A DNA stretch of 64,000 nt from Armatimonadota bacterium (lineage in GTDB: Bacteria > Armatimonadota > Fimbriimonadia > Fimbriimonadales > Fimbriimonadaceae), in the NCBI GenBank assembly GCA_025360125.1, contig JANYCU010000055.1, forward strand, positions 55,752 to 119,751, written 5' to 3'. The position numbers and the translations under genes are program-made. The first letter of the stretch is position 1. Each line of letters opens with the position of its first letter. The notes beneath the pieces are model-generated. The model was not told the DNA's origin and did not search any database. It saw only the letters and a program-made list of their open reading frames with translations. This document shows, piece after piece, positions 31,062-41,437 of the stretch.

Positions 31062-31085
31062 ACGTTCAAAACTAAAACGAAAAGG

Positions 31086-31113
31086 CCCCATCGAATTTCG
31101 ATGGGGTTATTTT
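31086..31113 (+). terminator. Intrinsic terminator after the thioredoxin-like gene
   Basis: CCCCATCGA (31086-31094) pairs with TCGATGGGG (31098-31106) around a 3-nt loop, followed by TTATTTTTT. The same hairpin could end the convergent small lipoprotein gene. Confidence 0.88.
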
Positions 31114-31126
31114 TTCATTTCAGTGA

Positions 31127-31435
31127 CTACTGGACGTTGACAGTGACACTGCTCGTCGCGGTGCCGCCGAAAGACGACTGCACCGTGATCGTGTAAGTCG
31201 TTGTACTACCGGGAGAAACAACTTTGGTTCCGTTAACCGTCGAAGCCCCAAAGTTAGACGAAACCACGCTACTCGCGTCAATGGACTGCCAGGCGAGAGT
31301 CGTACTCTGTCCGTTGGTAATCGTAAGCGGTGTAGCGCCAATCTGAACCGTCGTGGTGGGAATTCCCAATCCACCGCATCCAATCATTGCAAAACCAATA
31401 GCGGCCAACAAGTACTTTTTAACCATTCCTAACAT
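31127..31435 (-). CDS. Small lipoprotein with an immunoglobulin-like domain
   Basis: A 102-residue protein. The signal MLGMVKKYLLAAIGFAMIGC ends in a lipobox Cys. The rest is a single Ser/Thr-rich beta domain (TNGQSTTLAWQSIDASSVVSS...GSTTTYTITVQSSFGGTATSSVTVNV), like the bacterial Ig-like repeats of cell-surface proteins. The first ATG (31435) has GGGG a few nt upstream, so it is preferred over the ATG at 31426. Its role is probably surface adhesion or scaffold. Confidence 0.75.
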   Translation of the reverse strand: MLGMVKKYLLAAIGFAMIGCGGLGIPTTTVQIGATPLTITNGQSTTLAWQSIDASSVVSSNFGASTVNGTKVVSPGSTTTYTITVQSSFGGTATSSVTVNVQ

Positions 31436-31629: not shown

Positions 31630-31660
31630 GGCCGACTCATTGAGTTTCGGCCCTTTTTTT
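31630..31660 (+). terminator. Terminator after the initiator tRNA
   Basis: GGCCGA (31630-31635) pairs with TCGGCC (31647-31652), enclosing an imperfect CTCA/GAGT pairing, and is followed by CTTTTTTT. It overlaps the stop codon of the convergent PPTase gene. Confidence 0.8.
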
Positions 31661-32288
31661 ATTCCAAAATCGCAAAGGCCGCCGAATACCCTTCGGCAAC
31701 TTCCAAGTTCTGAAGCCGGACAGGCTCCGGCAGAAGCACCACATCCTGCAGCACACTGATCGTCCGCAGCGGAAAGCTCATTCCATCCCCCGTTGCTTTG
31801 ATCACCGACTCCTTACGAGCCCAAATACGAAAGAAATTGGCGGTGTCATTCTGCTCGGCCTTGAGCAAATTAATCTCTTCGCTTGCCAGAAAGTGCATGT
31901 CCAGACTTGCCATTTTGGCATTGTGAATTTCAATATCAACCCCAATCGGGCGATTCGTCGAAATAGCAACCAAACCAAATAGCCCCGACGAAGAAATTGA
32001 AAAATGAAGTGGAAAGCCTTTGAGCCACGGCTTGCCTCCCTCCTCAAATTCGAATTTCAACTTCTTTGGAATTTCGATTCCGAGTTCCCTGGCAAGCAGC
32101 CGACGAAGTGTGCTGCGCCGGACGACAAACCGATCCTGAAGCTCCGGCCGACCATATGATTTCATCTCCATGATGTCCGCCGAATCGAGGTCTAACCTAA
32201 ACTCTTTGATCTGCTCTGCCTCGGCCTCTAAGCTAAATTGCCAGACCTTGACCGAGTCCTTATCAAATATTTTGGTTACGTTCGTCAT
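31659..32288 (-). CDS. 4'-phosphopantetheinyl transferase (Sfp-type)
   Basis: A 209-residue enzyme that attaches the phosphopantetheine arm of CoA to a carrier-domain Ser. The Sfp hallmark GVDIEIHNAKM (Mg-binding acidic pair) and, further on, FFRIWARKESVIKATG (the W-x-x-KES-x-x-K motif) are present. The gene starts 3 nt after the end of the peptide synthetase, which has a carrier domain needing exactly this modification. I infer that the two form one dedicated unit. The shared transcript would end at the terminator over the tRNA side. Confidence 0.9.
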   Translation of the reverse strand: MTNVTKIFDKDSVKVWQFSLEAEAEQIKEFRLDLDSADIMEMKSYGRPELQDRFVVRRSTLRRLLARELGIEIPKKLKFEFEEGGKPWLKGFPLHFSISSSGLFGLVAISTNRPIGVDIEIHNAKMASLDMHFLASEEINLLKAEQNDTANFFRIWARKESVIKATGDGMSFPLRTISVLQDVVLLPEPVRLQNLEVAEGYSAAFAILE

Positions 32289-32291
32289 GGA

Positions 32292-35200
32292 TCACTTTTG
32301 TCCCACATTCGGATCGATCTGGGCTGGGGACCCTGTCCAGTATGTATGGGATGGAATTGTTTCGCCCTTCATCACCAGTGACAAGTCACCGATGTGGGCG
32401 TCGTGCTTCAACTCCGACTCACACAATATGACCGAATAGGTCCCCACCGAGCAGCGATCACCAATCGTAATCGGACCAATCTTCATGATCCGGTCCTCAA
32501 ACAAGTGGGCCTGAAGAGGCGCATTTGCATTGATGGCAACATCATCGCCAATTGAAATCAAATCCGTCTCAGTCCAATCGGTAGTATTCATAAATACGCG
32601 ATGCCCAACCTTCGCCCCAAGGAACCGCATAAATCCGGACATCATGGGCGTACCAACCAGTGGCAACACAAACAGGGGGACTCCAAAATCATGCAGCACC
32701 GCCGAGTAGGTCTCTACGTTCCAGACTTGCCGACTCCATAGTGGCTGGACCGAAGGCTTATATTTACCGACCAGTAACCATTTCGAAAACTTGCAGATAC
32801 ACGCGCCAATGAATGCGGTAACTAAATAGAGGATTGGAAGCGAAATCACACTCAAAACGATCGAGTGCATATCCCAAATCTCGACGAACGCCTCAATAAA
32901 ACCTGCCGCAATCATCAGCGAAAACATGCTCGGCAAAATAATTCGAAAGCCTTCATGAAAAAGACGTTCGATATAAAGTCGCTTGCTTGGACGATATGTG
33001 CGCTCAAGTCCAAAAGTATCGGTTACCTGGCGGCGCGGAAGCTTAAACGCGGGTGAACCGAGCCAAGCTTGCCCCACTTCATCACCCATCGTTTCAGGAC
33101 CGGGGGACGCGGAAAGAACACCCAAAAGGCTTTCATCAGGGATATTGGAGCCTTGCGGTACAACCGAGTCGTTGCCCAAAAAGACCCGCTTTCCAACGAT
33201 GGTCCGCAGCAGCGTAATCGTTCCATTTCGACGTAGCGGCATGCCAATACTAACTTCGCTAGCCAAAAAGCTTTCTTCGCCCATTTCAACCAAATCATAA
33301 GGCATTCGGCGCGGCAAGGCGATCTCGCAACGGGGCCCGCATTTCATTCCGAGTGCCTGGCACCAGTTTCGAGTGAACAGCGAATCATAAATCGGAACAA
33401 GAGTCCCTGTCATCAATTCAAGGTGCTTATCGGCAAACCACTTCCTTAGCCAATACCCTCCCGGATATTTGAAGACTCCGGGCTTCAACTTTCCGATAAC
33501 CAACCACTTAATCATCAGGGCTTGACCACAAGCAAATAAGACCAAGGCAATGGCATAAACTGGCTCCATCAAGTAGGCAAAAATGCCTTCGCTTTCGTTA
33601 TAAAGCGTAAACGCAATCGCCAGAAACGGGATTGAATCCAGTACCGCCAACACCGCAACGAGAACGGTTTGCAAAATAGCAAACGACACCAAGCGGTTCT
33701 TCGAGGGTCGCATCGTAGGATCATACGTCGGTAACAACCGCTCATCAACTTTATGCGCAGGGCTACCCGCCCACTCCTCATTGGCGGGAATTATGTTGCC
33801 CGCCTTAATGCACCCAAGATCCCGAAGGACCGAGCCATCCTCCATGATTCCCCCACCAGCAACCCCGGATCGAACGCCGACTACGCAGCCGTTACCAATC
33901 GATATTTTGCGGAGATGGAGTTGACCATTAGAAACTGTTGCGGCATGGAGCCACGCCGAGTTTTCAAAACTACAGTCATCCCCAATTGAAATAAGGCCCG
34001 GAGCGTCAATATCGAGCGACTCAAAGGTGACATTTTTGCCGACCTTTGCTCCAAGAGCACGCAGGAAAACGGTGGCCAAGGGAGTGCCCGTAATAAACGG
34101 AATCGGAGCAATCGCCAATATACGGTTTGCAAACCACCAGCGCAAAAATGTCGGTCCCCAAAGCGGATAAGTTCCCTCCTTTAAGCTTCCTCCCGTGATT
34201 CGTTTCGCAATCACAACAAACAAAAACAGGATCGGGACCTGGACGGCATTGATGCCTAAACCGACGAGGAATGCATGAAAGTCGGAGAGCCCGTTGTTGG
34301 AAAAGTAAATCGCGGCAAGAATCGGACCAAGCCAAGTGACGGCTTGGATTCCAAACAGGGCCAAGACGCAAAAGAACATGACCACCTTGGAAATCCGATA
34401 TTGCTTCTTGGAGACTTCAACAAAAACTGGCTCTTCCGAAATTGGACGAACCATTCCGTCTAGCAACGAGGCCAAGCTTCGAATTGTTGGATTCTCGTAA
34501 AGGTCAAGTACAGATAGCCCAGGATAACCGTGTGAACTCCTCAGAGTTGAAACGATTCGCGATGCGAGCAGCGAATAGCCACCTAGTTCCAAGAAGAAAT
34601 TGTCGTCGCACGAGATGTCTTCAGTCGCGAACAAATCTTGCCAAACACTCAGCAACAACGACTCGGTGTCGTTCATCGGCGGCAGAATCTCGCGCTCGAT
34701 TCGAACGGTGTGGCCATGCAAACTCGCGCATGCGCCGCGATCTATCTTTCCACTCGGCAGTACTGGGATCGATTCGACCAGCTCGACCGATTGCGGAACC
34801 ATGTAAGCGGGCATCGCCTCTCGCATGCGCTCAAGGAACGACGAAAACTCCAACTCGTGGTTTTCTTTGAGCCGAACCAATGCAATGAGCTGAGGATTAT
34901 CCGTGTCGGCCCCACGCACGATTACGACCGCGGTTTGCACCGAAGGCTCGGACAAAACATGGCTTTCAATTTCCGAAAGCTCAATTCGGTGACCGCGAAT
35001 CTTGACTTGGTTGTCAATCCGGCCAAGCCAGACAATATTTCCGTCCGCGTTGACCAGAACCCGGTCACCAGTTTTGTACAGAATCTTATTTCTGCGTTCG
35101 GGTTCGTAATACGGGTTTTCGAGAAAACGACCCAGACTCAACTCTTCCCTTCGGAAGTAGCCATTTGAAACTCCGATCCCTGCTATTGTCAACTCACCTT

Positions 35201-36230
35201 CATGCCCTAGCTGAACCTCTTCCAGGTCATCGTTCATCACATAACAGTCATATCCCGGCAAAGCCTGACCGATCGTCACAGGCTGACCTGGCGTGCAATA
35301 ACCAAAACTCGCCCCAACCGTCGCCTCTGTTGGTCCATAGGTATTGAGAATCTCTCGAGTCGGCTTCCACCACCGTTCGATCATCGATTTCGATAGACTC
35401 TCCGCACCAAACAAGACCCTTCGTAAAGTTGGAATGTCAACATCCACCATCGAAAGAAGAGTTGGCGCGCACGAAATGATCGTGATTTTTTGGTGATTTA
35501 AAAACTCAGCAAGTTCCTCTCCCGAGTGAACGTGGCTTGGCGAGGCAACCACCAATGTAGCTCCGGCCAAAAACGTCGGCCATACCTCTTCATGGTGCCC
35601 ATCGGATGCCGGACTAAAGCATTGCAAAACCTTGTCATCAGATTCAACGCGAATACAAACTGCCTGATTTCCAATGATGAAATTGGTAAGCGCTGCGTGG
35701 GTGATCGGCACTCCCTTAGGCCTGCCCGTTGTTCCCGAAGTAAAAATAATATAAGCCAGGCTATCAGGATCAATCTGGGGCGCAATCGCTGCCGGAGATA
35801 GAGACTTTGCCTCGGCCAACAACTCCTCTATTGCGCAAATCGGAGCCGTGCAGCCAATAAGATTTGTTGTTCGCTCCTCGGCAATAACGAGCGCGGGGTC
35901 GGCATCTTCGAGGCAGTCGGCGATTCTTCCCGGAGGCGATTGCGCATCAATTGGGACGTATGCCGCGCCAACCTTGAGAATTGAAACGAGGAGCAAGACT
36001 GCGTTTGGACCGCGTGGTAAAACGAAGGAAACCCGATCGCCCGCTTTGATGCCGCGAGCCGCCAAAGCAGCAGCCAATTGATTCGATCGCGATTCAAATT
36101 CTGAATAGGTCCAAGAAACACCATCAGCAACGACCGCAAGTTTAGAAGGAGTCGCGGCTGCCCAAAATGCTAATGACTCAAAAACAAAGTTCTGTATTTC
36201 GGCTTGCGGTTTGATCGATTCAGAGTCCAT
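32292..36230 (-). CDS. Pls/PosA-type single-module peptide synthetase with membrane and beta-helix domains
   Basis: About 1312 residues from the ATG at 36230; residue numbers below follow the track ORF, whose TTG at 36323 lies beyond two upstream hairpins. The order is: adenylation domain, residues about 50-540 (YIIFTSGTTGRPKG near 191; LNTYGPTEATVG near 327; A10 Lys at 526); carrier domain with GGYS Ser at 584; then about six transmembrane segments (646-668, 684-706, 878-906, 920-945, and two near 1125-1180); and three left-handed beta-helix hexapeptide domains (about 762-857, 995-1090, 1230-1335), each closed by a W-x-GSPA motif. This architecture is that of epsilon-poly-lysine synthetase and relatives, which polymerise one amino acid. 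No thioesterase or condensation domain is seen. The acidic residue D241 in the substrate pocket fits an alpha-amino acid, but the amino acid is unknown. Confidence 0.9.
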   Translation of the reverse strand: MDSESIKPQAEIQNFVFESLAFWAAATPSKLAVVADGVSWTYSEFESRSNQLAAALAARGIKAGDRVSFVLPRGPNAVLLLVSILKVGAAYVPIDAQSPPGRIADCLEDADPALVIAEERTTNLIGCTAPICAIEELLAEAKSLSPAAIAPQIDPDSLAYIIFTSGTTGRPKGVPITHAALTNFIIGNQAVCIRVESDDKVLQCFSPASDGHHEEVWPTFLAGATLVVASPSHVHSGEELAEFLNHQKITIISCAPTLLSMVDVDIPTLRRVLFGAESLSKSMIERWWKPTREILNTYGPTEATVGASFGYCTPGQPVTIGQALPGYDCYVMNDDLEEVQLGHEGELTIAGIGVSNGYFRREELSLGRFLENPYYEPERRNKILYKTGDRVLVNADGNIVWLGRIDNQVKIRGHRIELSEIESHVLSEPSVQTAVVIVRGADTDNPQLIALVRLKENHELEFSSFLERMREAMPAYMVPQSVELVESIPVLPSGKIDRGACASLHGHTVRIEREILPPMNDTESLLLSVWQDLFATEDISCDDNFFLELGGYSLLASRIVSTLRSSHGYPGLSVLDLYENPTIRSLASLLDGMVRPISEEPVFVEVSKKQYRISKVVMFFCVLALFGIQAVTWLGPILAAIYFSNNGLSDFHAFLVGLGINAVQVPILFLFVVIAKRITGGSLKEGTYPLWGPTFLRWWFANRILAIAPIPFITGTPLATVFLRALGAKVGKNVTFESLDIDAPGLISIGDDCSFENSAWLHAATVSNGQLHLRKISIGNGCVVGVRSGVAGGGIMEDGSVLRDLGCIKAGNIIPANEEWAGSPAHKVDERLLPTYDPTMRPSKNRLVSFAILQTVLVAVLAVLDSIPFLAIAFTLYNESEGIFAYLMEPVYAIALVLFACGQALMIKWLVIGKLKPGVFKYPGGYWLRKWFADKHLELMTGTLVPIYDSLFTRNWCQALGMKCGPRCEIALPRRMPYDLVEMGEESFLASEVSIGMPLRRNGTITLLRTIVGKRVFLGNDSVVPQGSNIPDESLLGVLSASPGPETMGDEVGQAWLGSPAFKLPRRQVTDTFGLERTYRPSKRLYIERLFHEGFRIILPSMFSLMIAAGFIEAFVEIWDMHSIVLSVISLPILYLVTAFIGACICKFSKWLLVGKYKPSVQPLWSRQVWNVETYSAVLHDFGVPLFVLPLVGTPMMSGFMRFLGAKVGHRVFMNTTDWTETDLISIGDDVAINANAPLQAHLFEDRIMKIGPITIGDRCSVGTYSVILCESELKHDAHIGDLSLVMKGETIPSHTYWTGSPAQIDPNVGQK

Positions 36231-36269
36231 TTTGTGTGGCGTGCTTGCATCCCAGCTCTTGACGATAAC

Positions 36270-36314
36270 GGGGCAAAATGCCCCAATTTCGCTTAGGTTC
36301 GCGCCGAACCTAAG
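36270..36314 (-). promoter_or_regulatory. Two perfect hairpins in the leader of the peptide synthetase
   Basis: CTTAGGTTCG (36292-36301) pairs with CGAACCTAAG (36305-36314) with a 3-nt loop. GGGGCA (36270-36275) pairs with TGCCCC (36279-36284), also with a 3-nt loop. Both lie within the leader upstream of the preferred ATG. They could regulate transcription or mRNA stability, or be an upstream terminator, though no T-run follows. Confidence 0.5.
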
Positions 36315-36453
36315 AAGACTCAAATAATTTACCTGACACGAGCTTAAACCAAAGTACTATTTTTCGAGCCTCAAGGTACAAGGATCAAAGATCAGGACCC
36401 AAGACTCAAGGCTGAAAGCTCCTTGAGGTAGCATCCTGTCTAATTATTCCCTT

Positions 36454-38037: not shown

Positions 38038-38445
38038 TCAGTTGTATATATCCTGAACGCAGATTTCACCCAGACAGATCGACTTAATCAAATTTGCAAC
38101 CCCATCCGGATTTGCCAAGACTCTTCGAGCTGAGATTCTAACGACCGAAATACCAGCTTGGGACAGAATCCTGTCTCGTACAATGTCTTCATTCCGTTTC
38201 AGTTCGTGAACGCTTCCGTCGATTTCAAAGACAATTTTGAGCTTCTCGAAATAGAAATCAGCCGTGAACTTTCCGAGCAAAGGTACTTGCCGCCGAAAGT
38301 GAAAATCCTTATTAACCTTCGGTCGCAACCGTTGCCAGATCATGACTTCAGGCAGGGACATTTCCTGTCTTAGCCTTCGGGCTCGAACTATTTTAGGCTG
38401 GGCAATCTTGCCAAACACATTTTCGTCTCGCATCGAAGAACTCAC
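38038..38445 (-). CDS. DUF559 (Vsr-like) endonuclease-domain protein
   Basis: A 135-residue protein. The domain runs from VRARRLRQEMSLPEVMIWQRLR to the end and shows the family's FRRQVPLLGKFTADFYFEKLKIVFEIDGSVHE segment. The Asp in FTADFYF and the Glu in VFEIDGSVH suggest a Vsr/PD-(D/E)XK-type active site. Free-standing DUF559 genes are scattered in many genomes and their targets are unknown. The gene is the only content of the structured element at 37939-38613. Confidence 0.87.
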   Translation of the reverse strand: MSSSMRDENVFGKIAQPKIVRARRLRQEMSLPEVMIWQRLRPKVNKDFHFRRQVPLLGKFTADFYFEKLKIVFEIDGSVHELKRNEDIVRDRILSQAGISVVRISARRVLANPDGVANLIKSICLGEICVQDIYN

Positions 38446-38620: not shown

Positions 38621-41437
38621 CTATGGAAGAGTTGAAACGAACTGGTACGTTCCTGATCCAACTGCAATCATTGCTTTCACCGACTTTCCACCCTCGGTCA
38701 CGTTGCTTCCCGGAACAAAGACCGTCGCCGACGTATTCGGCGGAACCACTACCGTTAGGGTCAACTTGTTTCCTTCCCGCTTCCAGTTGCTCTCAATCCG
38801 CCCGTACATCGAATCATGGTGCGCCTTAACCCAAGTCAAATCTCCAACAACCGACGGCCGAACGAAGAACTTCTTAAATCCGGGTCCCGATGGGTCCGGC
38901 TGGATTCCCGCCAAAGACTTGTAGAACCATTCGCTGACCGATCCAAACATCGGGTGGTTGTGCGAGTACGTGTTGTCGCTGAACTCCCAGTGCTCCCACA
39001 TCGTCGTCGCTCCATTCTCAAGCATCCATCCCCAACCAGGGAATGTCTTCTGGTTCACTATTCGATAAGCAATGTCATCTCTTCCCGCGTTCGAGAGGGC
39101 TTGGAACAAGTACTTCGTGCCAAATATTCCCGTCGTCAGATGATAGTCGTGGGCCTTGATGTCCTTGATCAGCACGTCGAGAACCTTCGCCTTCATGTCT
39201 TCGGGAACGAAGCCAAGGGCCAACGGGATCGCTTGGCAAGCCTGAGTTCCGGAATCATACGTTCCATCGGGCTTAAGGAATCGCTTGTTCAACGCATTCT
39301 TAAAGTCCTCGGCCAAGCCGTGCAATTTATTCGAATAGTGCTTGTTGCCCCTAACCCCATAAAAAAGATCGATCGAACCTGAAGCTACCTTTCTAGGATC
39401 GTCATCCGGCAAGTTACCAAGCAAAATAATACGCCCAAACCAGTCGTAATTTAGAAGCTCGTAGGTTAGCCCAGTTAGAGCCTCGGGCTTAGGCACCAGG
39501 CTCTCATGATCACTGATACCTTTCTCAATCTTCGCTTTATCCGCACCCGCGAGATAGTTCAGCCACAGTCCTTCGCTTGTAAAAAGGTCCTGGGCAACCG
39601 CTTTATCTCCGTAATAGTCATTCAACTGCACAATAAGCATCGGAAAAGCAGACGCCCATTCGATCGGGCCCGTTTGCCCACCCAAGCCTTCGTCGGCAAT
39701 TCCAACAAATGGTGCGGTCTCCGTAACCCCTCGTCGCACATTCGGTTTCATAACCCTATCGAAATTATTTCCTAATTCGGTCGGAGGATCGATGATCATT
39801 GATTCCGCCAGCAAATGAGCAGTATTAGCATAGAACCGAGCCATGTCGTACGTGTACATCGCCATCTCGCTCGTCGCAACCTGATCGCCCCCGTACCCAA
39901 ACTTCTCGCGGTGCGGGCAGTCTGACTGAACGCTAAACAAGTTGCTCAGCAACGTCCACTCAACCATTGTCTGAATCCGGTTGAACATCGGGTTCGAGCA
40001 CTCGAACGAGCCCACTTGCTCAACGTCCGAGTTCATCCGCAATCCCTCAAACGATTCTAGCGTCGGCTTGCCCGGATACCCGGTCACCTCGACATAGCGA
40101 AAGCCGTGGAAGGTAAATCGAGGCTGAAAGACTTCTTCTCCTGACCCGCCACAAATATATTCGTCGATTTGAAAAGCCGTCTTCGGATATCCCTTTCCGT
40201 CGTAATGGTAGTCCTGGCCGCCGCCCTTAATCTGGCCGGCAACCGAGGTCATGGCATTCAACGTTCCATCTTTGTAAAGTAATTCGCCCGACCGTAGCCG
40301 CACCCGGGTCCCGGCCGCCCCACGAACTTTCATGCGGGTTACGCCAGCGAAATTCTGACCAAAATCCACAATGAATAAACCGGGCTTTGGCTCAGTGATC
40401 TTTACAGGTTTAACCGTCTTAGTTATACGAATCGGCGGAGTTTGCTGCGATTGCAAGGCTCCAGTTTTGATCCCTTGAGCTAAGACCGCGGGTCCCCAGC
40501 CGCTATCATCGAAGCCAGATTTATCCCATCCGGGCTGCACATTTCGCGCATCGAACACTTCACCCAAATAGACGCTGTTTCGAACAATCGGCCCTTCCCC
40601 TGCTTTCCACGATGGATCGGAAACAATGACGTCCGTAGTCCCGTCTGCATATTCGATGTGAAGCTGAGCCAGCAACCTTGGATCACCAGTTGGCAAATGC
40701 TCTCTTAAATTGATGCCAAAAACCCTTAGCGGAACGGTGTTGAACCACCCATTTCCCAGCATCGCCCCGATTGCATTCTTGCCCTTGACCAAGGAAGACG
40801 TTACGTCGAAAGTCTGATATGAGACTCGCTTCGAAAAGTCGGTCCAGCCAGGATCGAGCTGATGATCGCCCACCTTGGCTCCATTCAAATGAAACTCGAA
40901 GTACCCTAATCCCGCCCCGAACAATAGGGCTCGCTTGATCGGCTTCGAAACAGTAAATTGCTTTCGAAACATCGGATTTGGATCGTCGTCGAAGGGATCG
41001 ACCGCGGCAAATGTCTCTTTTATGTGTCGCTGGATCCATTGCGCCTTCCAGTCTGACGGCGAGAACATTCCTGTGGTCCAGGCCGCGGCCTCACTCCAAG
41101 CGCAAGCTACCCCCTTTTCATCCCAAGTCCGAACCTTCCAAAAATATTGTTGATGAGAAGCCAACCGCTTACCTTGATAGGCAACTTGAATCGATGTATC
41201 CGCCTTCAGGATTCCGGAATCCCACGCGTCAGCTTTGCCAGGCTTTAACAAGCCTGGACTCGTTGCAACTAAAACTTGGAAGGCAGTTTGACGAGCCCCT
41301 CGAGTGGAGGATTTCAACCACCAACTCAATCGAGGTTTCGCGCTATCGATCCCCAGCGGATTGATCTGATACTCACACCGAAGGTTCTCAACTTTCGTCA
41401 TCGCGACCATACTCACAAAAACTGCTAAAGAAATCAT
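38621..41437 (-). CDS. Alpha-L-rhamnosidase (GH78-type)
   Basis: A 938-residue glycoside hydrolase that releases terminal L-rhamnose from glycosides or polysaccharides. The Bac_rhamnosid_N region begins NLRCEYQINPLGIDSAKPRLSW. The alpha/alpha-barrel shows DCPHREKFGYGGDQVATSEMAMYTYD with the likely acidic catalytic residue, followed by the C-terminal beta domain (GISD...GFKKFFVRPSVVGDLTWVKAHHDSMYGRI). A short hydrophobic start (MISLAVFVSMVAM) may be a weak signal; a later start at MTKVENLRCEY would be cytoplasmic. Its stop lies 8 nt from the structured element. Confidence 0.87.
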   Translation of the reverse strand: MISLAVFVSMVAMTKVENLRCEYQINPLGIDSAKPRLSWWLKSSTRGARQTAFQVLVATSPGLLKPGKADAWDSGILKADTSIQVAYQGKRLASHQQYFWKVRTWDEKGVACAWSEAAAWTTGMFSPSDWKAQWIQRHIKETFAAVDPFDDDPNPMFRKQFTVSKPIKRALLFGAGLGYFEFHLNGAKVGDHQLDPGWTDFSKRVSYQTFDVTSSLVKGKNAIGAMLGNGWFNTVPLRVFGINLREHLPTGDPRLLAQLHIEYADGTTDVIVSDPSWKAGEGPIVRNSVYLGEVFDARNVQPGWDKSGFDDSGWGPAVLAQGIKTGALQSQQTPPIRITKTVKPVKITEPKPGLFIVDFGQNFAGVTRMKVRGAAGTRVRLRSGELLYKDGTLNAMTSVAGQIKGGGQDYHYDGKGYPKTAFQIDEYICGGSGEEVFQPRFTFHGFRYVEVTGYPGKPTLESFEGLRMNSDVEQVGSFECSNPMFNRIQTMVEWTLLSNLFSVQSDCPHREKFGYGGDQVATSEMAMYTYDMARFYANTAHLLAESMIIDPPTELGNNFDRVMKPNVRRGVTETAPFVGIADEGLGGQTGPIEWASAFPMLIVQLNDYYGDKAVAQDLFTSEGLWLNYLAGADKAKIEKGISDHESLVPKPEALTGLTYELLNYDWFGRIILLGNLPDDDPRKVASGSIDLFYGVRGNKHYSNKLHGLAEDFKNALNKRFLKPDGTYDSGTQACQAIPLALGFVPEDMKAKVLDVLIKDIKAHDYHLTTGIFGTKYLFQALSNAGRDDIAYRIVNQKTFPGWGWMLENGATTMWEHWEFSDNTYSHNHPMFGSVSEWFYKSLAGIQPDPSGPGFKKFFVRPSVVGDLTWVKAHHDSMYGRIESNWKREGNKLTLTVVVPPNTSATVFVPGSNVTEGGKSVKAMIAVGSGTYQFVSTLP

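What the first reader, a model, noticed from the sequence alone, without database searches (positions are those of the whole stretch)
31659..36323. Self-contained Pls/PosA-like peptide synthetase plus PPTase
The gene order A-domain, carrier, six membrane helices and three beta-helix domains is that of epsilon-poly-lysine synthetase. Its phosphopantetheinyl transferase is 3 nt downstream. This would be a two-gene route to a homopolymer of one amino acid or to amino-acid ligation, possibly secreted or attached. I am not aware of one described in this lineage. The pocket residues (Asp present) allow an alpha-amino acid but do not tell which.
Basis: partly seen in the sequence, partly recalled or inferred. 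Interest (0 to 1): 0.75.

Follow-up and report, generated by a model that had tools for sequence, protein, structure and literature searches.

The report
Poly-lysine-type polymer synthetase with activator
A Fimbriimonas-type bacterium carries an intact two-gene kit, a membrane enzyme of the known poly-lysine/poly-ornithine synthetase family plus the enzyme that switches it on, and its active-site pocket predicts a polymer of lysine or a somewhat larger basic amino acid.

Summary
Window 32292-36323 (-) encodes an A domain, a carrier protein and a six-helix, three-beta-helix membrane domain. It passes NCBI's Pls/PosA model TIGR02353 (534 vs 423 bits). A Sfp-type PPTase starts 3 nt downstream. 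The start is more likely ATG 36230 than TTG 36323. The genome falls in the GTDB genus that contains Fimbriimonas ginsengisoli (Armatimonadota).

The specificity segment matches solved PosA and Pls A domains ahead of all others. The pocket code is D-G-E-S-L-G-T-V-G-K. It has the conserved Asp and Glu of cationic homopolymer synthetases and equals the Pls code except Ala and Val become Gly and Ile becomes Leu. This predicts lysine or a bulkier basic amino acid, not an acidic one. No lysine 2,3-aminomutase was found, so beta-lysine is unlikely.

The family is already known across many phyla, and PPTase adjacency recurs in Pseudomonadota and Verrucomicrobiota. What is new is a seven-member Armatimonadota clade with an invariant, apparently uncharacterised pocket (SDGHHEE[VI]W). 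This is the only Sfp-type PPTase in the genome, fitting a dedicated partner. The product is untested. Verdict: new member of a known kind, moderate interest.

The parts
32292..36230 (-). Pls/PosA-family cationic homo-polyamino-acid synthetase (A-T-CPT), most likely 1312 aa from ATG 36230; ORF extends to TTG 36323 (1343 aa; residue numbers here follow the 1343-aa ORF)
35154..36164 (-). Adenylation domain core (PF00501, residues 54-390); code D241 G242 E245 S284 L304 G306 T328 V336 G337 K526
34746..34973 (-). Adenylation C-terminal subdomain (PF13193), including A10 Lys526 (SGKIDR)
34461..34655 (-). Carrier protein (PF00550), phosphopantetheine Ser584 in DNFFLELGGYSLLASR
32322..34367 (-). C-terminal membrane polymerisation domain, TIGR02353 residues 653-1334
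34194..34403 (-). TM helix pair 1 (residues 641-676, 681-710)
33756..34046 (-). Beta-helix unit C1 (about residues 760-856)
33495..33701 (-). TM helix pair 2 (residues 875-910, 920-943)
33039..33326 (-). Beta-helix unit C2 (about residues 1000-1095)
32772..32984 (-). TM helix pair 3 (residues 1114-1152, 1162-1184)
32316..32612 (-). Beta-helix unit C3 (about residues 1238-1336); holds H1273, E1276, D1277, K1319, E1321, invariant in 32 homologues (candidate catalytic centre, inference)
31659..32288 (-). Sfp-type 4'-phosphopantetheinyl transferase (IGVDIE ... WARKESVIKATG), 3 nt after the synthetase stop
36292..36314 (.). Perfect 10-nt dyad in the presumed leader (CTTAGGTTCG-3 nt-CGAACCTAAG), possible operator
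31084..31108 (.). Terminator-like hairpin found on both strands, between this unit and the convergent thioredoxin-like gene

Best explanation
A two-gene operon for a cationic homo-polyamino acid. The PPTase converts Ser584 of the carrier domain to the holo form. The A domain adenylates a basic amino acid (alpha-amine held by Asp241, side-chain amine by Glu245) and loads it on the carrier. The membrane-embedded beta-helix domain joins loaded units through side-chain amine and carboxyl (isopeptide) bonds into a short polymer, as Pls and PosA do. The pocket is that of Pls with two residues shrunk to Gly, so the monomer is most likely L-lysine or a slightly larger basic amino acid. Shown by sequence or structure prediction: domains, motifs, pocket identity, PPTase pairing. 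Inferred from characterised relatives: loading, polymerisation, isopeptide linkage. Unknown: chain length, export, biological role.
For: TIGR02353 above curated cutoff. The specificity segment hits only four PDB sequences at E<1e-10: PosA 8G95 and 8G97 (3e-25), Pls 7WEW (3e-16), then 8XJZ (1e-11). Code DGESLGTVGK vs Pls DAESIGTVV read from the 7WEW alignment. D241 and E245 are invariant in 32 homologues; in PosA the equivalent D217 and E221 bind the two amines and their mutants are inactive. A-domain motifs other than A4, and the carrier Ser, are intact. The predicted CPT fold matches the published description for PosA. The genome has only one Sfp-type PPTase, here, besides an AcpS-type gene. 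Among 61 relatives, the only genomes scored with a second PF01648 gene (G000, G017) carry the synthetase, and in G028 the scored copy sits beside it.
Against: No product or activity evidence. The A4 motif is unusual (SDGHHEE instead of F/Y-D-x-x-x-E-E), so the pocket may differ from Pls more than the ten-residue code shows. Two of the seven clade members lack an adjacent PPTase (L146, L148). A homologue with another code did not act well on any of the known diamino acids (Bdellovibrionales).
Confidence: 0.78

Rival explanations
1. The enzyme belongs to the family but makes a polymer of a basic amino acid other than lysine (hydroxylysine, arginine-like, homolysine or N-modified lysine), giving an unreported polyamide. 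This is a sub-case of the best explanation.
For: Gly at the chain-length position (PosA Met218, Pls Ala) and Gly at position 9 enlarge the pocket (size rule). A4 motif SDGHHEE seen only in this clade. Long stem of 1.0, 100% SH-aLRT.
Against: The remaining code positions are nearly those of Pls. Pocket size alone does not set preference.
Confidence: 0.3
2. Poly-epsilon-beta-lysine synthetase, like that of Streptoalloteichus hindustanus (DGESISVVNK).
For: Shares D-G-E-S at code positions 1-4.
Against: No lysine 2,3-aminomutase (TIGR00238) in the genome or in the six code-sharing genomes and G009. Code positions 5, 6, 7 and 9 differ.
Confidence: 0.06
3. Single aminoacyl transfer (amino-acid ligation to a lipid, glycan or protein) rather than polymerisation: the beta-helix domain acts as an acyltransferase on another acceptor.
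For: The CPT fold matches hexapeptide acyltransferases and its catalytic chemistry is unproven. No export gene is adjacent.
Against: The characterised members with this domain polymerise. The pocket keeps the Glu that binds a side-chain amine, as isopeptide growth needs.
Confidence: 0.12
4. Ordinary NRPS module fragment or decayed gene.
For: The A4 motif deviates from consensus.
Against: Full length, no stops, all other motifs intact, orthologues at 58-59% identity in other species with identical code.
Confidence: 0.02

Closest known systems
epsilon-Poly-L-lysine synthetase (Pls), Streptomyces; A-domain structure 7WEW
   Same: A-T-CPT layout, Asp/Glu pocket, code the same at 7 of 10 positions
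   Different: Ala to Gly, Ile to Leu, Val to Gly in the pocket; SDGHHEE instead of FDASCEE A4 motif; PPTase directly downstream
delta-Poly-L-ornithine synthetase PosA, Acinetobacter baumannii; 8G95-8G98
   Same: Best PDB match of the specificity segment (E=3e-25), same CPT fold description
   Different: Code DMEHNGTVSK; Met limits the pocket to ornithine
epsilon-Poly-beta-lysine synthetase, Streptoalloteichus hindustanus
   Same: D-G-E-S start of the code
   Different: ISVVN at positions 5-9; a lysine 2,3-aminomutase neighbour, absent here
DSECYGGVTK-type homologues (Bdellovibrionales; also Armatimonadota and Planctomycetota)
   Same: Same family; two occur in the window's own genus
   Different: Other pocket, weak L-arginine activation reported, embedded in a SET/acyltransferase cassette

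Membership tests
Pls/PosA cationic homo-polyamino-acid synthetases | C-terminal NRPS_term_dom (TIGR02353) above curated cutoff | tested here: met
   533.9 vs 423.1 bits, residues 653-1334
Pls/PosA cationic homo-polyamino-acid synthetases | Single A domain and carrier with intact core motifs, no C or TE domain | tested here: met
   Pfam hits and motif conservation, Ser584 invariant in 32 homologues; the A4 motif deviates
Pls/PosA cationic homo-polyamino-acid synthetases | Asp (position 1) and Glu (position 3) binding alpha- and side-chain amines | tested here: met
   D241, E245
Pls/PosA cationic homo-polyamino-acid synthetases | Six TM helices in three pairs with three beta-helix units | tested here: met
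   AlphaFold pLDDT 85, pTM 0.86; hydropathy
Pls/PosA cationic homo-polyamino-acid synthetases | Makes isopeptide-linked homopolymer of a diamino acid | not testable with these tools
   Needs an enzyme assay
Sfp-type phosphopantetheinyl transferase | PF01648 match with GxDxE and WxxKE motifs, about 200-240 aa | tested here: met
   53.5 bits vs 25 cutoff; IGVDIE, WARKESVIK
epsilon-Poly-beta-lysine synthetase | Lysine 2,3-aminomutase present to supply beta-lysine | tested here: not met
   No TIGR00238 match in own genome or seven further genomes

The most novel reading that the evidence does not exclude
The seven-member Armatimonadota clade with the invariant pocket DGESLGTVGK and A4 motif SDGHHEE[VI]W makes a previously unreported cationic polyamide from a monomer larger than lysine.
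Probability: 0.25. Interest if true: 0.6.

Novelty: new member of a known kind. Interest (0 to 1): 0.38.

Why it matters
Only a handful of natural homopolymers of one amino acid are known, and some are used as preservatives or have antifungal activity. A small self-contained pair, with its own activating enzyme, from a hardly studied phylum and with an untested pocket is a cheap candidate for heterologous expression. The clade also gives a clean test of the rule that the residue after the conserved Asp sets monomer length.

Tried and rejected
A single-sequence scan of genome contigs found nothing; the alignment scan found the family in other phyla. LgrA is the top PDB hit for the whole A domain, but its score sums two domains, so it is not evidence for a neutral amino acid; restricting to the specificity segment removed it. 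Searches for a solved CPT structure gave only hexapeptide-type proteins. Beta-lysine as monomer rejected on absence of KamA. My first motif scan for PPTases was too strict and was replaced. A literature search for NRPS in Armatimonadota showed no paper on this system among the titles and abstracts listed.

Full report
Observation. The synthetase ORF lies at 32292-36323 and the PPTase at 31659-32288, both on the minus strand, with 3 nt between stop and start. Pfam finds AMP-binding, AMP-binding_C, PP-binding and ACPS. NCBIfam places the C-terminal half in TIGR02353, 'Pls/PosA family non-ribosomal peptide synthetase', at 534 bits against a cutoff of 423. The start is more likely ATG 36230: the G028 orthologue begins near there, and a perfect 10-nt dyad separates the TTG from that ATG.

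Lineage. The window's genus includes a held genome whose single contig is 5,231,762 bp (L028), exactly the published chromosome length of Fimbriimonas ginsengisoli Gsoil 348 (PMC4072686). The window is therefore from the same GTDB genus, phylum Armatimonadota.

Pocket. On an alignment of family members the ten specificity positions of the window are D241 G242 E245 S284 L304 G306 T328 V336 G337 K526. The specificity segment alone hits four PDB sequences at E<1e-10: PosA (8G95, 8G97), Pls (7WEW) and, much weaker, 8XJZ. From the 7WEW alignment I read the Pls code as DAESIGTVV. In PosA the equivalents of D241 and E245 bind the alpha-amine and the side-chain amine and are essential, and the residue after the Asp limits chain length: Phe for diaminopropionate and diaminobutyrate, Met for ornithine, Ala for lysine (PMC10522769). 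Gly there, and Gly instead of Val at position 9, predict lysine or larger. Poly-beta-lysine synthetase has DGESISVVNK, but a lysine 2,3-aminomutase was not found in this genome or in seven others of the group.

Clade. In 291 Armatimonadota genomes 25 have the family at E<=1e-40, 13 above the cutoff. Three code types occur: DGESLGTVGK (window and six others), DAESIGTVIK (Pls-like) and DSECYGGVTK. The DGESLGTVGK rows form one clade with 100% SH-aLRT and a stem of 1.0 changes per column. The motif SDGHHEE[VI]W was not seen in any locus retrieved from samples of 368 Verrucomicrobiota, 372 Planctomycetota, 379 Pseudomonadota and 397 Actinomycetota genomes. A few of those loci were truncated or could not be read, only the best matches were retrieved, and the samples are partial.

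PPTase. The genome has two PF01648 genes, this one and a 140-aa AcpS-type one. All 61 relatives have at least one; a second is scored only in G000 and G017, both with the synthetase, and in G028 the single scored copy is the one beside the synthetase. Divergent PPTase-like ORFs beside the synthetase in G009, G004 and G019 fall below the family cutoff or are not hit at all, so the count is a lower bound. Adjacency also occurs in Caulobacterales, Novosphingobium and a Verrucomicrobiota MAG. It is absent in L146 and L148, and L149 ends at the contig edge. The pairing is therefore a recurrent arrangement, not a peculiarity of this genome.

Membrane domain. The AlphaFold model of residues 640-1343 (13-row alignment) has pLDDT 85 and pTM 0.86 and shows three repeats of a helix pair, connecting helices and a beta-helix, as described for PosA. 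Foldseek finds hexapeptide acetyltransferases and gamma-carbonic anhydrases at E of 4e-5 and weaker, and no solved structure of the whole domain. Over 32 homologues the invariant charged or polar residues cluster in the third unit: H1273, E1276, D1277, K1319, E1321, plus N1051 in the second. I suggest, as inference only, that the third unit holds the condensation centre. The A-T half was also modelled (pLDDT 84, pTM 0.78), with the usual A-domain secondary structure, but no ligand could be placed.

Mechanism. Holo-conversion by the PPTase, adenylation of a basic amino acid, transfer to Ser584, and membrane-domain condensation into an isopeptide oligomer. The first two steps follow from clear family assignments and the third from the conserved carrier motif. 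Polymerisation rests on the characterised members doing so. Product identity is a prediction.

Verdict. Real, intact and correctly filed as Pls/PosA family. Known kind, wide distribution already published. The added value is the lineage, the basic-monomer prediction, a pocket type confined in my samples to Armatimonadota, and a good case for a dedicated PPTase.

Noticed in passing
L038:7162-13304; L039:7268-13356; L152, L153, L154, L157, L159; L049:2482-7022: Synthetases with code DSECYGGVTK sit in a recurrent cassette: a SET-domain gene upstream (found in L038, L039, L049, L152, L153, L154, L157; Armatimonadota and Planctomycetota) and, in L038, L039, L152, L154 and L159, a HGSNAT/DUF418 membrane acyltransferase-like gene downstream, sometimes with a divergent PPTase-like ORF. 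The code equals the Bdellovibrionales homologue reported with weak arginine activity. This may be a more unusual system than the one in the window.
   Followed up: partly
L037:11517-14587; L146:9200-12411; L148:9352-12425: A sugar-type ABC transporter set (two permeases and a solute-binding protein; Pfam-checked in L037 and L148) lies near the synthetase in three of the seven clade genomes, in L037 on the opposite strand after a tryptophan-halogenase-like gene.
   Followed up: partly
window 36292-36314: Perfect 10-nt inverted repeat with 3-nt spacer between the TTG and the presumed ATG start; possible operator.
   Followed up: no
window 31127-31435 (-): Small ORF of 102 aa with a lipoprotein-like signal and weak PKD-like match, same strand, 223 nt downstream of the PPTase and just before a terminator-like hairpin; might be a third gene of the unit.
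   Followed up: no
window 38038-38445 (-): DUF559 endonuclease-like gene (PF04480, E=7e-25), next to an alpha-L-rhamnosidase gene at 38621-41437.
   Followed up: no
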